Of a stretch of DNA of 36,514 nucleotides, positions 5,513-36,514 are shown piece after piece; the first letter of the stretch is position 1; every line of letters starts with the position of its first letter. Source of the stretch: Pseudomonadota bacterium (lineage in GTDB: Bacteria > Pseudomonadota > Gammaproteobacteria > Steroidobacterales > Steroidobacteraceae); assembly GCA_025360865.1 (NCBI GenBank), contig JANYBG010000017.1:1-36514 (forward strand). The letters are read 5' to 3'. Under the pieces are notes generated by a model. The model did no database searches, was not told the origin of the DNA, and saw only the letters and a list, made by a program, of their open reading frames with translations. The translations under genes and the position numbers were made by a program.

Positions 5513-8452
5513 TCACGATTGCGGTGGCGTTGCCGCCGCCTCCGGCGCAAGTGTTCTGACGTTCGCTTCGTTGTCAGCGCGTACGCGTTCCAGCAGCGCG
5601 CGGAAGTCGGCCCGAGGACGCAAGGTGGAGAAATACGGCTCGCGCTCGGCGAGCCAAGCGTCGCGCCAGCCCTGATCCGCAGCGCGCTGCAGAGCGCGCA
5701 TCGCCCCTGCTACGTCCCCGCGCAAAGCCGCCACCTGCGCCTGCAGCTCATACACCCCGTGGCGGCGCATGCCCGCCGCGGTCAACCGATCGAGCAGCGC
5801 CGTAAGCGCGGTCAACTGTTGCGCTGCTCCCGCCGCATCGCCAGTCGCCTGGTGCGCCGCAGCGGCGATCAGCAGATAAGCGCGCCCGGTGCGCGCGAGC
5901 CACGGGCTGGCAAGGTCATCGGGCCTGAGTTCGGTCGAGGCAAGTGCCCGGTCGACGAACGCCCGCGCGGCTTGGGGCTCGCCTGCGAGCAGCTCCACGT
6001 TCGCCAGCTCAAATAGCACGCCGGGGTCGCTCGCATCGGCGAGGCGCTGCGCGGCAATCCGCTGGTGCAGCGCCTCGAGACCACCGCCGGCGTATGCCGT
6101 GACGAGTCCGATCCAGCTGAGCCAGGGGGTGGCATTAGTATTCCCAGTCGCGACGACCGCCGCGTCGTAGCTCTCGCGTGCCCGTTCCGGAAGACCGAGA
6201 CTCAACAGCCAGTGTCCGCGCTGCGCGTAGAGTTCCTGAGCGTCGGCTGAGCGCGAGAGGGCGACGCTATTCCAGCGCAGCGCCTCGGCGAGCCGGCCGC
6301 GCGCCTCTTCCAGGTCGCTCGACACGCTATAAGCGGATACAGACTGCGGGTCGAGGCTGCGGGAGCGGTCGCAGGCTGCGGCCGCACCGTCGTATTGCCC
6401 CAGATCTGCGAGCGCAGTGCATCGTTGCGCGGCGAGGTTGTAATCCAGCGGATCAAGATCGGCGGCGTGACTGTAGTAGCGCAGCGCGTCGCGCGGCTGA
6501 CCGTTGACGAGGTAGTAGAAACCGAGCTCAGAGGCTGCGTCGCGAGAGTTGGGATTGAGCGCCTCGGCATGATGCAGGTCACGCAGTGCCGCATCATGCC
6601 GCAGCAGCTCTGTCTCAAGCGCGCCACGCACCACATACACGTCGGCGAGGCGCGGCGCCTGTTTCGCGGCGCGTTCCAGCAGAGGCATGGCGTCGCCCGC
6701 GATATCCACGATGGGTCGGTCGTTGAAATAGCGCTGATTCAGGTACGCGTAGGCGAGCCCGACCTGCGCGAGCGCGAAGCTCGGATCGAAATTGATGGCT
6801 TGCCGGTACAGCTCGATGGCGCGCTCGTTGTCCTGCTTGGTTCCTTGCTGCTGATGATGGCGCGCGACGAGGTAGAGCGCGTAGGCCTGCGCACTGGAGC
6901 TGCGCCGTTCGCTCAGGTTGGCGATCGCCACGCCCGTCAACCGAAGCTCCAGATTGTTGGCGACTGACCGTGCCACCTCTTCCTGCATCAGGATGACATT
7001 GGTCGACGCGGCATCATAGGAACCGGACCAGAGGTTGTAGCCGTCGCGCGTGGAGATGAGCTGCACGCTTACGCGCAAGACATTGCCGGCGCGCCGCAGC
7101 GTGCCTTCGAGCACGTGCGTTGCGCCGAGCTGGCGACCGATCTCGCGCACGTCAGTCTGACGGTCGCGAAATACGAACGCCGAGCTGCGCGCAACAACCC
7201 GCAACATCGGGATCTGCGCAAGCCAGTTGGAGAGCTCCTCCGTGATCCCGTCACTTAAGGGCTGCTCGGTCTTGCCGACGCTCAGATCGACGAATGGCAG
7301 CACCGCGATCGCCGTCTGACCGTTCGAGGTCGCTCCCTCCACCACGACCGAGTGCCGGGATACCCACCACCTATCGAGTAAGTAGGTCAGGCCCACAGCT
7401 GCGATCGCAATGAGGATCGCCGCGCTGAGGAGGGCGACTGGCCGAGCGCGGGGCCTGGTGTCAGCGCCGAGCCCGGCGAGCAGTGCTTCCACGGTGCTGG
7501 TGCGTGCCTCCCGGTCAAAGGCCAGCCCTTTTGCCAGCGCCGCATTCTGTCCCCGCGACAGCCCCTGGAGCGGCGGCACCTGGGTACCCGCTGCCCGAGC
7601 GTCGAGCGCGCTGAGTTCCCCGAATGGGCGCTCCCCGCAGAGCATCTCGTAGATCACGCAGGCGAAGGAGTAAATGTCATCGCGCCGGTCCGCCTCCTTC
7701 CCCTCGAGCATCTCGCAGCTGGCATAGGCGGGTGTGAGGGCGCGCGGCCCGGAATCGGCGTGCAGTAGCGGACCGCGCGACACCCGCGCAATGCCGAAGT
7801 CGAGCAGTTTGGTCCTGCCCGAGATTGTCCGGAACACATTCGCAGGCTTCAAGTCGCTGTGGATCACGTTGTGGTCATGCGCGTTGCCCAGCGCCTTGCC
7901 CACGTCCTCAATGATTGGCCAGGCGTGACTGAAGGGCAGGCCGCGGCCAAACTCCTCATCGAGCAGCATGTCCAGCGACTTGCCTTCGAGATACTCCATC
8001 AATACATAGAGCCTCTGGCCATCCACATTCACCGAATGCGCGTCGACAATGTTGGGATGGCTCAGCTTGCGCGTCTTACGGACCTCCTCCCTCAGCAGCG
8101 TGAGGATCGCGGGGTGCAACTCCTCCTTGAGAACCTTGATGGCGAACCTCTCGCCGGGCACCTGCTCATCGGCGGCCAGGTACACCACCCCCATCCCCCC
8201 CTCACCGAGCTCGCGCTCTATGCGGTAGCGGCCGCCGAGCAGATGGCCAATCGCAAGCCGCACGCTGTTGGATGACATGGCCGTTTGCGCTCGCCCGGTC
8301 GCGCCTCGGCGGCGCCCCTGAGGCTGCGTCTCCGGAAGTTCTGCGGGGGGTGGGCCTTCTTGTGCGCACGCTGACAGCTGCGGATCGACTTCGGCCTCCC
8401 GCGGTGAGGCTGCGGTGGACAGGGATGCGCGGTCCTTTTCTTCTGCGGTCAT
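5513..8452 (-). CDS. Transmembrane Ser/Thr protein kinase with FlgO/TolB-like domain and TPR repeats
   Basis: 979 aa; LGEGGMGVVYLAAD (G-loop), FAIKVLKEE (Lys), HSDLKPANV (HxD, not HRD), LLDFGIARV (DFG); TM ALLSAAILIAIAAVGLTYLL; TAIAVLPFVDLS...LSDGITEELSNWLAQIPMLRVVARSSAFVF...LGATHVLEGTLRRAGNVLRVSVQLI; then TPR-like repeats. Confidence 0.92.
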   Translation of the reverse strand: MTAEEKDRASLSTAASPREAEVDPQLSACAQEGPPPAELPETQPQGRRRGATGRAQTAMSSNSVRLAIGHLLGGRYRIERELGEGGMGVVYLAADEQVPGERFAIKVLKEELHPAILTLLREEVRKTRKLSHPNIVDAHSVNVDGQRLYVLMEYLEGKSLDMLLDEEFGRGLPFSHAWPIIEDVGKALGNAHDHNVIHSDLKPANVFRTISGRTKLLDFGIARVSRGPLLHADSGPRALTPAYASCEMLEGKEADRRDDIYSFACVIYEMLCGERPFGELSALDARAAGTQVPPLQGLSRGQNAALAKGLAFDREARTSTVEALLAGLGADTRPRARPVALLSAAILIAIAAVGLTYLLDRWWVSRHSVVVEGATSNGQTAIAVLPFVDLSVGKTEQPLSDGITEELSNWLAQIPMLRVVARSSAFVFRDRQTDVREIGRQLGATHVLEGTLRRAGNVLRVSVQLISTRDGYNLWSGSYDAASTNVILMQEEVARSVANNLELRLTGVAIANLSERRSSSAQAYALYLVARHHQQQGTKQDNERAIELYRQAINFDPSFALAQVGLAYAYLNQRYFNDRPIVDIAGDAMPLLERAAKQAPRLADVYVVRGALETELLRHDAALRDLHHAEALNPNSRDAASELGFYYLVNGQPRDALRYYSHAADLDPLDYNLAAQRCTALADLGQYDGAAAACDRSRSLDPQSVSAYSVSSDLEEARGRLAEALRWNSVALSRSADAQELYAQRGHWLLSLGLPERARESYDAAVVATGNTNATPWLSWIGLVTAYAGGGLEALHQRIAAQRLADASDPGVLFELANVELLAGEPQAARAFVDRALASTELRPDDLASPWLARTGRAYLLIAAAAHQATGDAAGAAQQLTALTALLDRLTAAGMRRHGVYELQAQVAALRGDVAGAMRALQRAADQGWRDAWLAEREPYFSTLRPRADFRALLERVRADNEANVRTLAPEAAATPPQS

Positions 8453-8703
8453 CTAGTGCGCCTTGGTGGTCGGCAAAAGCATGCGCCCACTCGGCCAATA
8501 ACAGCAAATTCGATCCGCGCCGGCGGTAAACGCGCAGTTACGCGGATCCGCCGTAATTGCGTAAGCGCGCAAGATTTCACTGCTTCCTAAGATCTCCCTA
8601 AGGACCGCCGGGTGGCTCGTGGGTAATGTCACTCCCGAGGCTGAGAACTACCGATACGTCCGAAGCCGCAGTGAAGTTCCCAAATCCAAGACAGGAGACC
8701 GTC

Positions 8704-9057
8704 ATGAACTCGAATGTGAAGACCGATAAGCGCACCGTCCTCGGTTACGCCTCGACGATGTGGCTAGCGTGTGTGTTGGTTGCTTTCAACGCGCATGCTA
8801 ACGATGAGCGCTCCGAGACCGTCAAGTTCTCCGATCTGAACCTCAGCTCACCGGCGGGCGTGGAGGCGCTCTACGGGCGCATTCACGCGGCAGCCCGGCG
8901 CGTCTGTGACCAGCCGGCGGGGGAGCAGGCCGCAGTCAAGGGGTGCATGACTAAAGCTGAGAACGGGGCGATCGGAAAGGTGAACCTCCCGTTGCTCACA
9001 ACGTTCTACCAGCAGAAGACCGGAAGACAGCCGCAAGCGATCACCGCGAGTCGATGA
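8704..9057 (+). CDS. UrcA-like family small secreted protein
   Basis: ATG at 8704 preceded by acaggag. MNSNVK...WLACVLVAFNAHAND signal peptide, then ETVKFSDLNLSSPAGVEALYGRIHAAARRVCDQPAG, the typical UrcA-family pattern. Confidence 0.75.
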   Translation: MNSNVKTDKRTVLGYASTMWLACVLVAFNAHANDERSETVKFSDLNLSSPAGVEALYGRIHAAARRVCDQPAGEQAAVKGCMTKAENGAIGKVNLPLLTTFYQQKTGRQPQAITASR

Positions 9058-9065
9058 AAAGCTGC

Positions 9066-9098
9066 AGGGGTCTGGGCAATGGCCAAGCTCGGACCCCT
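9066..9098 (+). terminator. Weak hairpin downstream of the UrcA-like gene
   Basis: aggggtc (9066-9072) pairs with gacccct (9092-9098) right after the stop codon. No clear T-tract. Confidence 0.3.
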
Positions 9099-9216
9099 AT
9101 TCTTCGACGACGGTCGGCTCGCCCGATGTTTCCCGCAGGACGACGTGCTATTTAGGAGTGGCCACTGCGACACCCCCTTTTTTTTGCGGCGCAGCATAAA
9201 TGGGGGCGGCTGAAAA

Positions 9217-9939
9217 GTGCCGGCTACTGGAACCAGAACCATGAGGCTGAAGTACAGCGACTGCGTGCTCGACTTAGACGCTCGGCAGCTCGAGCGCGCG
9301 AATAAGGCCGTCCCTCTCGAGCCCAAGATGTACGAGTTGCTCGAAGTACTGATCAGGCGCCGGCCGGCGGTCGTCACAAACAACCAACTCGACGAGCTGC
9401 TCTGGCCAAATGTTTACGTCGCGCGCACCAGCTTGACGCGTCTGGTCTCGGAGCTCCGAGCCGTGCTCGGTGACACGCCGCGTGATTCCTGCATCATCCG
9501 AACCGTTTACAAGGTTGGATATGCGTTCTGCGCCGAGGTGACCGACCTTCCTTCAGTGCGGTCCTTGCCGATAACGATCGAGCTGCTTTGGGCGAAGCAA
9601 GCGTTCCCACTCGCGGACGGCGAGCACATCGCGGGACGGGACGCGGAATGCTCACTGGTCATCGAAGGCACCACGGTTTCGCGACGTCACGCCCGCATCA
9701 CGATCGCTGACGGAGCGGCGACAATCGAGGACCTCGACAGCACCAACGGTACTAACGTCAATGGAACACGCATCTCGGCGCCGACGCGGCTCGCCCCCGG
9801 GGATGAGCTTGCGCTTGGGAGCGAAGTGTTGCGAGCGCGGTTGCGCAGTTCATCCGCGTTGACCGTCAAGGTGGACCCAGACAGTGAGGCCAGCGCCAAG
9901 TCTGCGGGCAGATCACCGAAAGGAGAGTTGAAGCCGTAG
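9217..9939 (+). CDS. OmpR/PhoB-type winged-helix DNA-binding domain fused to an FHA domain (start could be ATG at 9241)
   Basis: MRLKYSDCVLDLDARQLERANKAVPLEPKMYELLEVLIRRRPAVVTNNQLDELLWPN...TSLTRLVSELRAVLGD...IIRTVYKVGYAF (wHTH); HIAGRDAECSLVIEGTTVSRRHARITIADGAATIEDLDSTNGTNVNGTRI (FHA: GRD, SRRHA, STNGT). Confidence 0.93.
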   Translation: MPATGTRTMRLKYSDCVLDLDARQLERANKAVPLEPKMYELLEVLIRRRPAVVTNNQLDELLWPNVYVARTSLTRLVSELRAVLGDTPRDSCIIRTVYKVGYAFCAEVTDLPSVRSLPITIELLWAKQAFPLADGEHIAGRDAECSLVIEGTTVSRRHARITIADGAATIEDLDSTNGTNVNGTRISAPTRLAPGDELALGSEVLRARLRSSSALTVKVDPDSEASAKSAGRSPKGELKP

Positions 9940-10226: not shown

Positions 10227-12272
10227 TCACTCCGGCAATTTCATCTTGCGCAGGATCGCCTTGAAACGGGGGTCGCCGCGTGCGGAAGCGAGGAACGGGT
10301 CCACCTTTACCGCGCCCAGTCCCGAGTCACGCTGTCGATAAGCGCGATCCAGCCATTCCATGGCCTTGTCTTTCTCACCGCACCATGCGTATACGGTCGC
10401 GATCTGGTAAGCACTGTCCTGCGCGTGATGCACGATCAGTTCTTGAAGCGCGCGCTCGGACTCCGCCGCATGCCCGAGGCTGTGTTCGGAGACCGCGATG
10501 CCCCAGACTCTGGTTATTTCATCCGAAATCTGGGTGAAACCCGCACGGGCGGCCTCCGCTCGGCCGTCCAGCACATCCAATGTCAAGAGGTTCGTGCGCG
10601 GCAATTCACTATCAGGGGCGAGAGCTTGCGCTCTTTCCAGCGCGCGCCGGGCCGCCGAATAGTCACCTTGGTTTGTGAGAGAGGAACCCAACCGGTTCCA
10701 CACAAAGGGGTTCAAGGAATCGAGAGCGAGCGATTGTTGCTCGGCGTGGATGGCCTGCTGCACGTGTCCCAAGGACTCGAGCGTCACACCGTACTGCGAC
10801 AGAGAGCGGCTGTCGTTTGGCGCCAGCGTTAGTGCGCGTTCGACGTCCGCCTGAGCACCCGCGAAGTCCAGCATGTCTGACCGGTAATCGGAGCGCGCGC
10901 GATAGCCGTCCACGAGCTCCGCGTCGAGCTCAAGTGCCTTTTCGGCCGCTATTCGGGCGCGCTCGTACCCGGCGCGGTCGTCAGTGCCCTCTGCCAAGTT
11001 GGTCTCGGAATTCGCAATAAACGCGAAGGCGGCGGCGAACTTCGGATCCAGCTTCGTTGCCTCCTTGAACGCCGCGAGAGCCGCTTTGAACCCCGCGTCG
11101 GTGGCGCGATAAAACTGCTGCTTACCCCGCAAGAATTGATCATAGGCCGCCGGTACCGACGTCGGAATCGATGCTAGGGCATCGGATGGGCCTGCAAGCC
11201 TCACTTTCAGAGCGGCCAGGACGGCCGCCGCGATCTCGTCCTGAATCTTGAACGTGTCGCTCATTTCCCGATCGTAGGTCTCCGACCACAGAGGCTCGCC
11301 GTTGTCGGTGCGTATCAATTGCGTGGTCACGCGCAGCCGATTGCCGGATTTCCGGACGCTTCCTTCGAGAATGTTGGCGACATTCAGCTTCTTGGCGATG
11401 GTCGGAATGTCGTCGGACTTACCTTTGAAAGAAAACGACGAGGTTCGCGCGATGACGTGAAGGCCTGGGATCTTTGCAAGAAGATCCAGCAGCTCTTCGG
11501 CAAGACCGTCCGAGAAATACTCCTGATCGTGCTTCTCGCTCATGTCGAGGAACGGCAGCACCGCGATGGATTTCTCGGGAATCGCTCGCCGTCCGATCGC
11601 CGTGGGCTGAGCGCTTGGGGCGGATGTCTGGGTGCCTGCCGCGGAGCGCTTTGAGAAGATGAACTTGTCCACTGCGAGGTAGCCGAAGCCGATGCCGGCG
11701 ACCGCCACGATCATCGGCACTGCACGTAGCGTTGGCCGCGATTTGGCGGAACTAAGAGCAGGTTGTCGGGGCGCAGCCCCAGTGTTGGGTGCCGCGACGG
11801 CCGCTGGCGAGTGAGATTCGGGCGATGCATGAGTCGCTTCGGGCGAAAGCAGCCGTGCGACGCGCTCGACGAATGTGGTCGGAGTCACGCCCGCCGGGGA
11901 GCGCGTCCACTGCACTTTAAGGAATGACTCGGGTACCTCAGCGCCGCGGTCCGGTGTGTCATCGACGCAAACGGGGATGATGAACGCCTTGCTACGGGCG
12001 ATCATGTGGCTGCGTTGGTCGGCGATATCCCATTCAAGCCGAAAGTACCCTTCAGCTCGCGCCTGCGTATGCGCTGAAATGAGCGGAACAAACAGCGCAC
12101 AGTCAGCGATCTGCCGACGGATGTGATGATCCCAGGCGTCTCCGCCCCGCAGCTCGCTCTGATCGAACCAGACCTCGACGCCAGCAGCGCGCAGCGCCTT
12201 GCAGATACGACGAGCCGCATCTGCGTCTTGCGAGGCATAGCTCAAGAATACGGCCTTAGAGGACTGCGCCAC
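10227..12272 (-). CDS. TIR domain, TM, FlgO/TolB-like domain and TPR repeats
   Basis: ORF track gives 10227..12461, but GTG at 12272 with upstream ggggag is a better start. AVFLSYASQDADAARRICKALRAAGVEVWFDQSELRGGDAWDHHIRRQIADCALFVPLIS...FRLEWDIA (TIR); PMIVAVAGIGFGYLAVDKF (TM); KSIAVLPFLDMSEKHDQEYFSDGLAEELLDLLAKIPGLHVIARTSSFSF...LEGSVRKSGNRLRVTTQLI; TPRs. Confidence 0.9.
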   Translation of the reverse strand: MAQSSKAVFLSYASQDADAARRICKALRAAGVEVWFDQSELRGGDAWDHHIRRQIADCALFVPLISAHTQARAEGYFRLEWDIADQRSHMIARSKAFIIPVCVDDTPDRGAEVPESFLKVQWTRSPAGVTPTTFVERVARLLSPEATHASPESHSPAAVAAPNTGAAPRQPALSSAKSRPTLRAVPMIVAVAGIGFGYLAVDKFIFSKRSAAGTQTSAPSAQPTAIGRRAIPEKSIAVLPFLDMSEKHDQEYFSDGLAEELLDLLAKIPGLHVIARTSSFSFKGKSDDIPTIAKKLNVANILEGSVRKSGNRLRVTTQLIRTDNGEPLWSETYDREMSDTFKIQDEIAAAVLAALKVRLAGPSDALASIPTSVPAAYDQFLRGKQQFYRATDAGFKAALAAFKEATKLDPKFAAAFAFIANSETNLAEGTDDRAGYERARIAAEKALELDAELVDGYRARSDYRSDMLDFAGAQADVERALTLAPNDSRSLSQYGVTLESLGHVQQAIHAEQQSLALDSLNPFVWNRLGSSLTNQGDYSAARRALERAQALAPDSELPRTNLLTLDVLDGRAEAARAGFTQISDEITRVWGIAVSEHSLGHAAESERALQELIVHHAQDSAYQIATVYAWCGEKDKAMEWLDRAYRQRDSGLGAVKVDPFLASARGDPRFKAILRKMKLPE

Positions 12273-12291
12273 AGGCTCCCCAGAAGCGTCT

Positions 12292-12648
12292 TTGTTAGCT
12301 GGGAACCAAGGATGCGGGAGTGTAGATGCCAGCGCAACAACTGGCCTGCAATATCCTGCTACACCCCATACGATCACGTTCGGCAAGGAGCCAATGAATC
12401 CGGGAGCGCCTTCCGACAACGTGACGGTGGATGCCGACGGGGCGCGGCACGCGACCATCAAGGCATCTTCGGACCGGGTACATTCGGGCCTTATCGGGGC
12501 CGCGCCTCAAGAGCGGGTTGGACTGCCGCAAACGCCAGTGGCGGTAACGCGCTTCCGCGTCACGTTTACGACAGCGGGAACGTACCCTTATATCTGCGCT
12601 CTTCACGACACCCTGGGGATGAAGGGAGAGATTATCGTTCTTCCCTGA
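12292..12648 (+). pseudogene. Cupredoxin/plastocyanin-like protein, 5'-truncated
   Basis: TPHTITFGKEP...NVTVDADGARHATIKASSDRVHSGLI...VTRFRVTFTTAGTYPYICALHDTLGMKGEIIVLP is the C-terminal part of a type-1 copper domain (C-x-x-H-x4-M). No signal peptide or N-terminal strands upstream; the sequence there belongs to the divergent TIR gene start. Confidence 0.7.
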
Positions 12649-28041: not shown

Positions 28042-29847
28042 TCAGGCGGTCACAGGTCCCTGCGGCGCCGCAGCCCTGGAGCCGATGAGGCTGATGAACC
28101 CGGGGTGCCCACGTAGTCCATCCAAGTCCGGGTCGTGCTTCAGCCAGCCATCGTCGGCGTAGCCCTTGGCCATCGCTCCGCGCAGTGTTTCGACGGCCCG
28201 GTCCGCCTCGCCAAGCCGCGCGTACAGGCATGCGCAGTTATAAAGCATCATTCCATCGTCGGGACTGACCTCGAGCGCCTTGGTACCTTCACGCAGCGCC
28301 TCCTCCTTGCGATTCATCTCCGCGAGTACGACCGCGAAGTACATGCGCGCCCGCGCGTCATCGGGATTCTGCAGCAGATAGTTCGGCATCAGCTCCGATA
28401 CCTGCTTGCGCGCGGCCCGGGCCTCCTCGGTCCGGCCGAGCCCGTCGCAGCTCTGGGCCAAGTCCACGTAGCCGGAGAAGAATGACGGCTTCAGTTCGGT
28501 GACGCGGCGGAACAGGTCGTACGCCTTGGCGAACTCCCCGTTGGTGAAATGAATGCGGCCGAGCGTCCAGTGCGCCACGAAGCCGTCGGGATCCATCTCA
28601 ATCGCCTTGCGGCTGGATTCACCGGCCTCCGCGAGCTTGCCCCAGATGAAGTAGGACAACCCCATCGCGGTATAGGCCTCCGGTAGGTTGTTGTCATACA
28701 TGAGCGCCTTGAAGCTCAACTCCTGCGCACGCGTACGGAAAGCGTCATCACGCGCGAAGTACTGGTACAGCTGGCCATAGGCGATGGAGGCGGCCGCGTA
28801 GGCGGCCGCGTAGCGCGGGTCGAGCTCCGTCGCCTTCTCGAACAGCTGGATCGCGTATTCGACGCTGCGCTTGGTCAGGCGGTACAGATAATCCTGACCC
28901 TTCAGATACAGGTCGTACGCGTGAGCGTCGATCGTCTGTCTCTTGGTCAGCGAGACCTTCTCCGAGAAGGAGAGCTTCAGCTTCAATGCCTCAACGATCT
29001 GCTGCGCCACCTGCTCCTGGATGTCAAAAATGTCGTCCAGCTTGCCTTTGTAGGTGTTCCCCCAGATCTGGCGGTTGGTCGTCACATCCACGAGCTGGAC
29101 GTTTATGCGGAAGGAGTCTTGGGAGCGCCGCACGCTACCGCCGACGATGTAGCGGGCACCGAGCTCACTGCTGATCGCGCGCACGTCGTGCTTGCGCTCT
29201 TTCAGCTGCTTGGATGCCCAGCGCGATACCAGTTCGATCTCGCTCACCAGGGACAGGCGGGTGGTCAGTTCCTCGGTCAGTCCATCGCTGAAATAATCCG
29301 TCTCCGGATCTGAGCTCATGTTGTCGAACGGCATGACAGCGACCGCGCCGCCCTCGCCGAGACTTGCGGGACGTTCCGTGCTCGCCTGGGCTTCGCGCGT
29401 CTGGGCTTGACTGGCCGCCTCCGCCGGCGCCGCCACAGTGACGCCGATCCGCGCGAGCGATCGCAGGATCGACTTCAGCCCCGCCTCGGAGTCGCCGTCG
29501 TCGAAGTATTCAATATGCTGGATGCCGGCCAGCGGGTACTTGAGGGTCGAAGGAATGACCGTGGGTTCAAGATGGACCGGCAGGATATTGCCGTTGCGCT
29601 CGCTCACGAGCATCACCTCCTTCGCCACGTTGTGCGATTGGACCGCCGCCTCGGTGACGATCAGCAGTAGCACCTTTACGCTCTCGAGCGCGGTGACGAT
29701 CTGTTCGCTCCAGAGCGACGCGGCGTCAAGTCCGCCCTGGTCGATCCAAAGCGAGACGCCCGCGGCGCGCAGTTTCGCCGCCAGCGCGAGAACACGCGCG
29801 GAGTCCTCCCTGGAATAGCTTACGAATACCTCAGGCTGTCGCGCCAC
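28042..29847 (-). CDS. TIR domain, FlgO/TolB-like domain and TPR repeats (no obvious TM)
   Basis: 601 aa; PEVFVSYSREDSARVLALAAKLRAAGVSLWIDQGGLDAASLWSEQIVTALESVKVLLLIVTEAAVQSHNVAKEVMLV (TIR); GAVAVMPFDNMSSDPETDYFSDGLTEELTTRLSLVSEIELVSRW...VGGSVRRSQDSFRINVQLVDV; TPRs. Confidence 0.92.
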   Translation of the reverse strand: MARQPEVFVSYSREDSARVLALAAKLRAAGVSLWIDQGGLDAASLWSEQIVTALESVKVLLLIVTEAAVQSHNVAKEVMLVSERNGNILPVHLEPTVIPSTLKYPLAGIQHIEYFDDGDSEAGLKSILRSLARIGVTVAAPAEAASQAQTREAQASTERPASLGEGGAVAVMPFDNMSSDPETDYFSDGLTEELTTRLSLVSEIELVSRWASKQLKERKHDVRAISSELGARYIVGGSVRRSQDSFRINVQLVDVTTNRQIWGNTYKGKLDDIFDIQEQVAQQIVEALKLKLSFSEKVSLTKRQTIDAHAYDLYLKGQDYLYRLTKRSVEYAIQLFEKATELDPRYAAAYAAASIAYGQLYQYFARDDAFRTRAQELSFKALMYDNNLPEAYTAMGLSYFIWGKLAEAGESSRKAIEMDPDGFVAHWTLGRIHFTNGEFAKAYDLFRRVTELKPSFFSGYVDLAQSCDGLGRTEEARAARKQVSELMPNYLLQNPDDARARMYFAVVLAEMNRKEEALREGTKALEVSPDDGMMLYNCACLYARLGEADRAVETLRGAMAKGYADDGWLKHDPDLDGLRGHPGFISLIGSRAAAPQGPVTA

Positions 29848-36253: not shown

Positions 36254-36514
36254 ATGGCCCATGACGTTTTCCTGAGTTACTCCTCGGCTGACCGCGTGAC
36301 GGCGAACGCCGTGGTCGAGGTACTGGAGACTCAGGGGGTGCGCTGCTGGATCGCCCCGCGCGACATTCCGCCGGGCACCGAGTACGGGCAGGAAATCGTC
36401 GAGGCCGTGAAGGGCTGCCGCGTCTGCGTCATCATCTTCTCGGCCAGCGCCAACGCCTCGCCGCACGTGCGGCGCGAGGTCGAGCGCGCGGTCTCCGCCG
36501 GCAAGCACCTGGTG
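36254..36514 (+). CDS. TIR-domain protein, cut by the right window edge
   Basis: Own translation from ATG 36254: MAHDVFLSYSSADRVTANAVVEVLETQGVRCWIAPRDIPPGTEYGQEIVEAVKGCRVCVIIFSASANASPHVRREVERAVSAGKHLV. Absent from the ORF track because it has no stop in the window. Confidence 0.88.
   Translation, partial: MAHDVFLSYSSADRVTANAVVEVLETQGVRCWIAPRDIPPGTEYGQEIVEAVKGCRVCVIIFSASANASPHVRREVERAVSAGKHLV

What the first reader, a model, noticed from the sequence alone, without database searches (positions are those of the whole stretch)
5513..9939. Kinase-TPR protein and a nearby wHTH-FHA regulator as a candidate phospho-signalling pair
Seen: a transmembrane Ser/Thr kinase (5513-8452, minus) and a DNA-binding wHTH-FHA protein (9217-9939, plus), separated only by a small UrcA-like gene. 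Established: FHA domains bind phosphothreonine and PknB-type kinases can phosphorylate FHA regulators (e.g. EmbR in mycobacteria, which also has an OmpR-type DNA-binding domain and an FHA domain). Inference: the kinase may control the regulator's DNA binding, with the UrcA-like gene or the divergent promoter as target. The catalytic loop is HSD rather than HRD, so activation may not depend on the usual activation-loop phosphorylation.
Basis: partly seen in the sequence, partly recalled or inferred. Interest (0 to 1): 0.6.

Follow-up and report, generated by a model that had tools for sequence, protein, structure and literature searches.

The report
Kinase–FHA regulator pair controlling urcA
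A membrane protein kinase and a DNA-binding protein that recognises phosphorylated threonine are inherited together next to a small secreted-protein gene (urcA), whose promoter carries a conserved double binding site of the right kind, so the three very probably form one dedicated signal-to-gene circuit that I found no description of.

Summary
The wHTH-FHA gene has eight relatives (seven orthologues, one distant). Seven of the eight have a Ser/Thr kinase beside it; in the eighth the contig ends about 1 kb away. Among 396 genomes of the order, the orthologous kinase occurs in 5, all of which have the wHTH-FHA gene (7 have that; Fisher p about 3e-10). The kinase's cytoplasmic half is 79-84% identical between loci while its periplasmic TolB/TPR half is exchanged. 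urcA lies beside them in seven of nine loci. Its promoter carries an 11-bp-period direct repeat (CTTCCTAAG-NN-CTYCCTAAG), exactly 21 bp before a -10-like hexamer, in all seven. The site is unique in the 3.8-Mb genome. Across the genus, urcA genes sit beside wHTH-TolB-TPR regulators or ECF-sigma/kinase pairs about tenfold more often than flanking DNA predicts, and wHTH-linked urcA promoters are enriched for 11-bp repeats. Best reading: envelope signal, then kinase, then wHTH-FHA, then urcA. Phosphorylation, DNA binding and the direction of control are inferred. Known analogues are PknH-EmbR, AfsK-AfsR-afsS and PknS-EcfK; this is a new variant.

The parts
5513..8452 (-). Transmembrane Ser/Thr kinase (979 aa): N-terminal cytoplasmic Hanks kinase, one TM, periplasmic TolB/FlgO-like domain and TPRs
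   Evidence: Pfam PF00069 131.8 bits; TM by hydropathy at residues 339-360
7583..8251 (-). Kinase domain, HSD catalytic loop (non-RD), DFG and GEGGMG intact; 79-84% identical in orthologous loci
5516..7318 (-). Periplasmic TolB-like + TPR sensor half, swapped between loci (39-42% and 22-28% identity to orthologous loci)
8478..8493 (+). 16-bp element AGCATGCGCCCACTCG conserved upstream of the kinase gene (window, G016, G017, G308); function unknown
8583..8602 (+). Predicted wHTH-FHA operator: tandem direct repeat CTTCCTAAG-AT-CTCCCTAAG, 11-bp period
   Evidence: footprint in all 7 loci read; unique in own genome at up to 2 mismatches; chance 0.06 per window at up to 3 mismatches
8624..8629 (+). 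-10-like hexamer TAATGT, exactly 21 bp after the second repeat in all 7 loci
8704..9057 (+). urcA: small secreted UrcA-family protein (117 aa), signal peptide, conserved Cys68 and Cys81 in the mature part
   Evidence: TIGR04433 59.5 bits
9066..9098 (+). Terminator-like GC hairpin between urcA and the wHTH-FHA gene, present in 6 of 7 loci
   Evidence: Trans_reg_C 55.4 bits, FHA 71.4 bits; orthologues start at this ATG
9862..9864 (+). Codon of Thr208 in the tail after the FHA domain, the residue aligned as invariant in 9 of 9 relatives; candidate phosphoacceptor (inference)

Best explanation
A dedicated phospho-signalling circuit. A periplasmic signal is read by the TolB/TPR half of the kinase, and the cytoplasmic non-RD kinase becomes active. 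It phosphorylates its neighbour, the wHTH-FHA protein (possibly at Thr208), or itself, and the FHA domain binds that phosphothreonine, which brings two wHTH domains together head-to-tail on the 11-bp direct repeat at 8583-8602. From there, just upstream of a -10-like hexamer, the protein recruits RNA polymerase to transcribe urcA. Shown: the gene and domain content, co-inheritance, conserved linkage, sensor exchange behind a fixed kinase, and the conserved, genome-unique tandem site at fixed distance from a -10-like element. Inferred: phosphotransfer, FHA binding, DNA binding, activation rather than repression, and the nature of the signal.
For: Co-occurrence: orthologous kinase in 5 of 396 genomes, all five with the wHTH-FHA gene (7 of 396 at E<=1e-80; Fisher p 2.7e-10). 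Linkage: kinase, urcA and wHTH-FHA contiguous in the window, G016, G386, G308 and G375 (divergent) and, with one extra gene, in G063 (one strand); in G017 the two contig ends share about 32 identical bases inside the intergenic region. Fixed kinase, swapped sensor: kinase 79-84% identical while TolB is 39-43% and TPR 22-29% between sensor types; G386's TolB is 77% identical to a TIR-TolB and a wHTH-TolB protein but only 54% to G063's kinase TolB. Where the kinase is replaced by another type (G375), urcA, the wHTH-FHA gene and the operator stay. Operator and -10 spacing invariant in seven loci across four genera; unique in the genome. Independent support: urcA genes linked to other wHTH regulators are enriched for direct repeats at period 11 and not at other periods (p 7e-5). 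FHA motifs intact (GR, SRRH, NGT).
Against: No biochemistry exists. Co-occurrence rests on one inherited locus type in a single family, so the instances are not independent. Kinase and regulator could be co-inherited without direct phosphotransfer. In G368 no kinase or urcA was found, but the contig ends about 1 kb away. Among about 100 urcA genes in the genus, roughly 60% have no such regulator nearby, so urcA is not always wired this way.
Confidence: 0.75

Rival explanations
1. The FHA domain does not receive the kinase's phosphate but docks on the autophosphorylated kinase at the membrane, sequestering the transcription factor there, so kinase activity represses (or de-represses) urcA.
For: FHA domains bind phosphorylated kinases in other systems (EmbR needs its FHA domain to interact with PknH, PMC4601284). 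Same gene content and linkage data.
Against: The kinase's N-terminal extension and activation loop hold no invariant Thr besides the P+1 Thr, whereas the aligned regulator tail holds one. The operator sits where activators of this fold bind, just upstream of the -10.
Confidence: 0.15
2. urcA is not just the target but part of the sensing device: the secreted UrcA protein binds the periplasmic TolB/TPR domain and gives feedback to the kinase, as CpxP does to CpxA. (Compatible with the best explanation, so the confidences do not sum to one.)
For: UrcA and the TolB/TPR half share a compartment. urcA is linked to several unrelated signalling outputs whose common part is often the TolB/TPR sensor: wHTH-TolB-TPR, ECF+kinase-TolB-TPR, kinase-TolB-TPR+wHTH-FHA.
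Against: Some linked regulators lack TolB/TPR (wHTH-PD40, wHTH-STAND). About 60% of urcA genes have no linked sensor. No structural evidence: the UrcA model is low-confidence with no fold match.
Confidence: 0.3
3. The genes are chance neighbours in the window; the kinase has other substrates and the regulator other inputs.
For: Ser/Thr kinases (10 hits) and wHTH proteins (several) are plentiful in the genome.
Against: Contradicted by co-occurrence and conserved adjacency across genera.
Confidence: 0.04
4. The pair arose by splitting a one-component, urcA-linked wHTH-TolB-TPR regulator into kinase-TolB-TPR and wHTH-FHA.
For: Same partner gene and same operator style in relatives; the wHTH is nearest to wHTH-TolB-TPR proteins.
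Against: The closest wHTH domains are not the urcA-linked ones, so convergent recruitment to urcA fits better.
Confidence: 0.1

Closest known systems
PknH-EmbR (Mycobacterium tuberculosis)
   Same: Ser/Thr kinase and an OmpR-type wHTH regulator with a C-terminal FHA domain; EmbR's FHA domain is needed for the kinase interaction (PMC4601284). 2fez (EmbR) is the best solved-structure match, through the FHA part only.
   Different: EmbR has a BTA domain between wHTH and FHA; here the wHTH joins the FHA directly (232 aa). Here the sensor is TolB/TPR, the kinase is non-RD, the host is a gammaproteobacterium, and the likely target is urcA.
AfsK-AfsR-afsS (Streptomyces)
   Same: Ser/Thr kinase, OmpR-fold activator phosphorylated by it, a small target gene, and two 11-bp direct repeats in the target promoter near the -10 (PMC10936776).
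   Different: AfsR carries NOD/TPR domains and no FHA. In the afsS promoter the box overlaps the -35/-10 spacer, whereas here the repeat ends 21 bp before the -10-like element.
PknS-EcfK and ECF43-type kinase/sigma pairs (Xanthomonas)
   Same: Transmembrane Ser/Thr kinase with periplasmic TPRs acting on an adjacent transcription factor by direct phosphorylation (PMC13147305). Pairs of ECF sigma and PknS-like kinase sit beside other urcA genes here.
   Different: The output is a sigma factor, not an FHA regulator; the ECF-linked kinase domains found here are only 32-39% identical and RD-type.
CadC/ToxR-type wHTH-TM regulators (wHTH-TolB-TPR)
   Same: OmpR-type wHTH, TM and periplasmic TolB/TPR; linked to urcA in relatives, with 11-bp repeats in the urcA promoter.
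   Different: One protein, no kinase and no FHA.
UzcRS-urcA (Caulobacter)
   Same: urcA as a target of an envelope-signal system whose regulator reads repeats in its promoter (PMC8963506).
   Different: UzcRS is a histidine-kinase two-component system; here the regulators are Ser/Thr-kinase, ECF or one-component types.

Membership tests
EmbR-like kinase-regulated wHTH-FHA transcription factors | N-terminal OmpR-type wHTH and C-terminal FHA in one protein | tested here: met
   PF00486 55.4 bits, PF00498 71.4 bits
EmbR-like kinase-regulated wHTH-FHA transcription factors | Central BTA domain (SARP family) | tested here: not met
   No BTA family among Pfam hits; wHTH and FHA are adjacent
EmbR-like kinase-regulated wHTH-FHA transcription factors | Phosphorylated by the cognate kinase, FHA-dependent | not testable with these tools
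   Needs protein biochemistry
Hanks-type Ser/Thr receptor kinase | P-loop, catalytic Lys, catalytic Asp, DFG, TM segment and periplasmic domain | tested here: met
   GEGGMG 83, FAIK 103, HSD 198, DFG 218, TM 339-360; PF00069 131.8 bits
Hanks-type Ser/Thr receptor kinase, RD subclass | RD catalytic loop (HRD) | tested here: not met
   HSD in five orthologues, HND in one; non-RD subclass
UrcA family (TIGR04433) | Match above curated cut-off | tested here: met
   59.5 bits against 25
UrcA family (TIGR04433) | Uranium- or metal-induced expression, as in Caulobacter | not testable with these tools
   No expression data
OmpR/PhoB/SARP-type promoter | Tandem direct repeats with 11-bp period close to the -10 | tested here: met
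   Seven of seven loci, fixed 21-bp spacing to a -10-like hexamer
ECF43-type sigma/kinase pair (PknS-EcfK) | Adjacent ECF sigma factor | tested here: not met
   No ECF hit beside the window kinase; kinase domain 34-38% identical to the ECF-linked kinases
His-Asp two-component system | Histidine kinase and receiver domain | tested here: not met
   Neither domain in the kinase or the wHTH-FHA protein

The most novel reading that the evidence does not exclude
In this gammaproteobacterial family urcA is a standard companion gene of envelope sensors, recruited repeatedly behind interchangeable outputs (one-component wHTH-TolB-TPR, kinase to ECF sigma, kinase to wHTH-FHA). The secreted UrcA protein works with the periplasmic TolB/TPR sensor, as feedback ligand or effector, and sensor halves are exchanged freely between these outputs. 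That would make the kinase/wHTH-FHA pair a Ser/Thr counterpart of a two-component system, with a dedicated operator and a swappable sensor.
Probability: 0.35. Interest if true: 0.75.

Novelty: new variant of a known kind. Interest (0 to 1): 0.62.

Why it matters
Bacterial Ser/Thr kinases are usually seen as promiscuous, with few dedicated cognate transcription factors. This is a compact cognate pair with a predicted, genome-unique operator and one evident target gene, so kinase-to-gene signalling could be tested with three proteins and one promoter. It also gives genomic context for UrcA, a secreted family of unknown function, which in this group keeps being placed beside envelope sensors. The exchange of sensor halves behind a conserved kinase shows modularity like that of histidine kinases.

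Tried and rejected
(1) Split-protein origin from the urcA-linked one-component regulators: the nearest wHTH domains are not urcA-linked. (2) The TIR-TolB-TPR gene at 10227-12461 as a fourth member: not present at the orthologous loci read. (3) A genome-wide regulon: the operator has one match in the genome at up to 2 mismatches. (4) A sigma-70 promoter with a recognisable -35 at urcA: none found, as expected if the activator replaces it, but not evidence. (5) UrcA fold: AlphaFold model from 5 sequences, mean pLDDT 61, three helices in the mature part, no PDB match below E 2; uninformative. (6) Wider distribution: no wHTH-FHA relative at E<=1e-22 among the other 368 genomes of the class sample and none covering 80% of the query on plasmids. 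(7) A second operator copy upstream of the wHTH-FHA gene: only in G308. (9) A first enrichment count by called genes was replaced by a six-frame census because the gene caller missed some urcA genes.
Full report
OBSERVATION. All three genes are real and at the stated coordinates. The kinase (5513-8452, minus) has a Hanks domain (Pkinase 131.8 bits), a FlgO/TolB-like region just below its cut-off and TPRs; hydropathy gives one transmembrane segment at residues 339-360, so the TolB/TPR half is periplasmic if, as usual, the kinase is cytoplasmic. The small gene is a true UrcA-family member (TIGR04433, 59.5 bits, cut-off 25) with a signal-peptide-like start. The third protein is an OmpR-type wHTH joined to an FHA domain. 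Its start is better placed at ATG 9241 than at GTG 9217, because the orthologues begin there.

CO-OCCURRENCE. In the first 60 relatives the full-length wHTH-FHA protein occurs only in G016 and G017, the two genomes that also hold the closest kinase and the closest UrcA. A profile search over 396 genomes of the order found the wHTH-FHA orthologue in seven (G000, G016, G063, G386, G375, G368, G308) plus a distant one in G265; G017 was not in that sample. A profile of the kinase's cytoplasmic half found orthologues in five, all among those seven; Fisher p 2.7e-10 (genomes are related, so this is not a probability of independent events). G386 has a second, more distant kinase of the same clade (HGD) with no wHTH-FHA gene in the stretch read.

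LINKAGE. Kinase, urcA and wHTH-FHA are contiguous and arranged as in the window (kinase divergent) in G016, G386, G308 and G375; all on one strand in G063, with a nitroreductase-family gene between kinase and urcA. In G017 the pair lies on two contigs whose ends share about 32 identical bases within the kinase-urcA intergenic region, so they are almost certainly adjacent. In G375 the kinase is not orthologous: it is 66-69% identical to ECF-linked, PknS-like kinases and about 35% to the window type, yet urcA, wHTH-FHA and the operator are kept. In G265 a different kinase lies about 1.1 kb from the wHTH-FHA gene, without urcA. In G368 neither kinase nor urcA was seen before the contig ends.

SENSOR EXCHANGE. 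Between the window, G016, G017 and G063 the kinase region is 79-84% identical in every pair. Between the window, G016 and the G017/G063 pair, however, the TolB region is only 39-43% and the TPR region 22-29% identical (G017 and G063 share one sensor type, about 75% identical). This is exchange rather than fast drift: G386's TolB is 77% identical to the TolB of a TIR protein and of a wHTH protein, but 54% to that of the G063 kinase; and the TolB of G063 and G308 is 78-79% identical to that of an ECF-linked kinase in G075 whose kinase domain is only 36-39% identical to theirs. The conserved unit is kinase plus urcA plus regulator; the sensor is replaceable.

OPERATOR. The region upstream of urcA is mostly unalignable between genera, but every one of seven loci holds a tandem direct repeat of period 11 (window: CTTCCTAAG 8583-8591 and CTCCCTAAG 8594-8602), followed after exactly 21 bp by a -10-like hexamer (TAATGT in the window; TAANNT in five loci, TAGGTT and CAACTT in the others); the repeat ends about 100-115 bp before the ATG, G017 being uncertain because of the join. 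The pattern has one match in the own genome at up to two mismatches; 0.06 matches per window are expected by chance at up to three. Tandem 11-bp repeats near the -10 are how OmpR-fold activators such as AfsR bind (PMC10936776). A GC-rich terminator-like hairpin follows urcA in six of seven loci, so urcA may be transcribed well above the regulator gene.

UrcA ACROSS THE GENUS. UrcA matches were found in 45 of 58 congeners. I read the neighbourhood of essentially every match with E<=4.5e-11 (104 UrcA places) in six frames: 38 have a wHTH, ECF or kinase domain within 2.5 kb. The density of such domains is 0.13 per kb within 1.5 kb and 0.012 per kb at 3-8 kb, a 10.8-fold ratio, p 2.7e-12 without correction for relatedness; the profiles were trained partly on these loci, a mild bias. 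The partners are wHTH-TolB-TPR (18), ECF sigma with or without kinase (11), wHTH-FHA (4), wHTH of other architecture (4) and kinase alone (1). About half of the wHTH-TolB cases share one syntenic site beside rpiA and are not independent. In the own genome the rpiA-site urcA is present without that regulator, and another urcA lies beside an ECF/kinase pair. A period scan of urcA upstream regions shows a rise only at 11 bp and only in the wHTH-linked group (mean best match 7.1 of 9 against 6.0 for unlinked genes, p 7e-5 without the wHTH-FHA loci; within-group test p 1.5e-4). This supports, on separate loci, the rule that the neighbouring wHTH regulates urcA.

MECHANISM. Best-supported: periplasmic signal, kinase, wHTH-FHA, urcA. 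Shown here are gene content, co-inheritance, linkage, sensor exchange, and an operator of the right type at constant promoter geometry. Inferred are phosphotransfer, the phosphoacceptor and activation. A candidate acceptor is Thr208 in the tail behind the FHA domain, the one tail position aligned as Thr in all nine relatives; the tail alignment of the distant members is uncertain.

COMPARISON AND NOVELTY. It works like PknH-EmbR and AfsK-AfsR-afsS, and its kinase layout like PknS-EcfK, but it is not a member of the EmbR/SARP family (no BTA domain) nor of the ECF pairs. A literature search in open-access papers found no description of a wHTH-FHA/urcA system; most subscription papers could not be searched. 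I rate it a new variant of a known kind.

LIMITS. The named relatives are metagenome-assembled; five orthologous loci match records titled only Gammaproteobacteria or Proteobacteria bacterium. Counts are not corrected for phylogeny. Nothing biochemical was tested.

Noticed in passing
window 10227-12461 (-), 28042-29847 (-), 36254-36514 (+): TIR-domain or TIR-like proteins, two of them TIR-TolB-TPR: the same TolB/TPR module behind a TIR domain instead of a kinase or wHTH. TIR-TolB of a relative shares 77% of its TolB domain with a kinase of this family.
   Followed up: partly
L134/L175 (G017), L142:8449-9549 (G063), L198:4012-5103 (G308): A SagB-like nitroreductase-family gene (PF00881) lies directly downstream of the kinase in three orthologous loci and is absent from the window; it may be a second output.
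   Followed up: partly
L075 (own genome C78:1-4048): A second urcA in the same genome is divergent from an ECF sigma factor (PF07638) and a PknS-like kinase.
   Followed up: partly
L078 (own genome C216) against L080-L084, L087, L106: At the rpiA locus relatives carry urcA plus a wHTH-TolB-TPR regulator and CTTCA-type tandem repeats; the window's genome keeps urcA there without the regulator, and its repeats look degenerate.
   Followed up: partly
window 8478-8493: 16-bp AGCATGCGCCCACTCG, identical in four loci upstream of the kinase gene; possibly a kinase promoter element or part of a small upstream reading frame.
   Followed up: no
L138:8408-11002, L145:786-3320, L085:1045-3174: Other urcA-linked regulators join the wHTH to STAND/NB-ARC ATPase or PD40 propeller domains.
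   Followed up: no
L007:5514-7050 (own genome C138): A PP2C-like phosphatase gene (by reading, not scanned against a library) directly upstream of an FHA-domain protein gene elsewhere in the genome; a possible phosphatase for Ser/Thr signalling.
   Followed up: no
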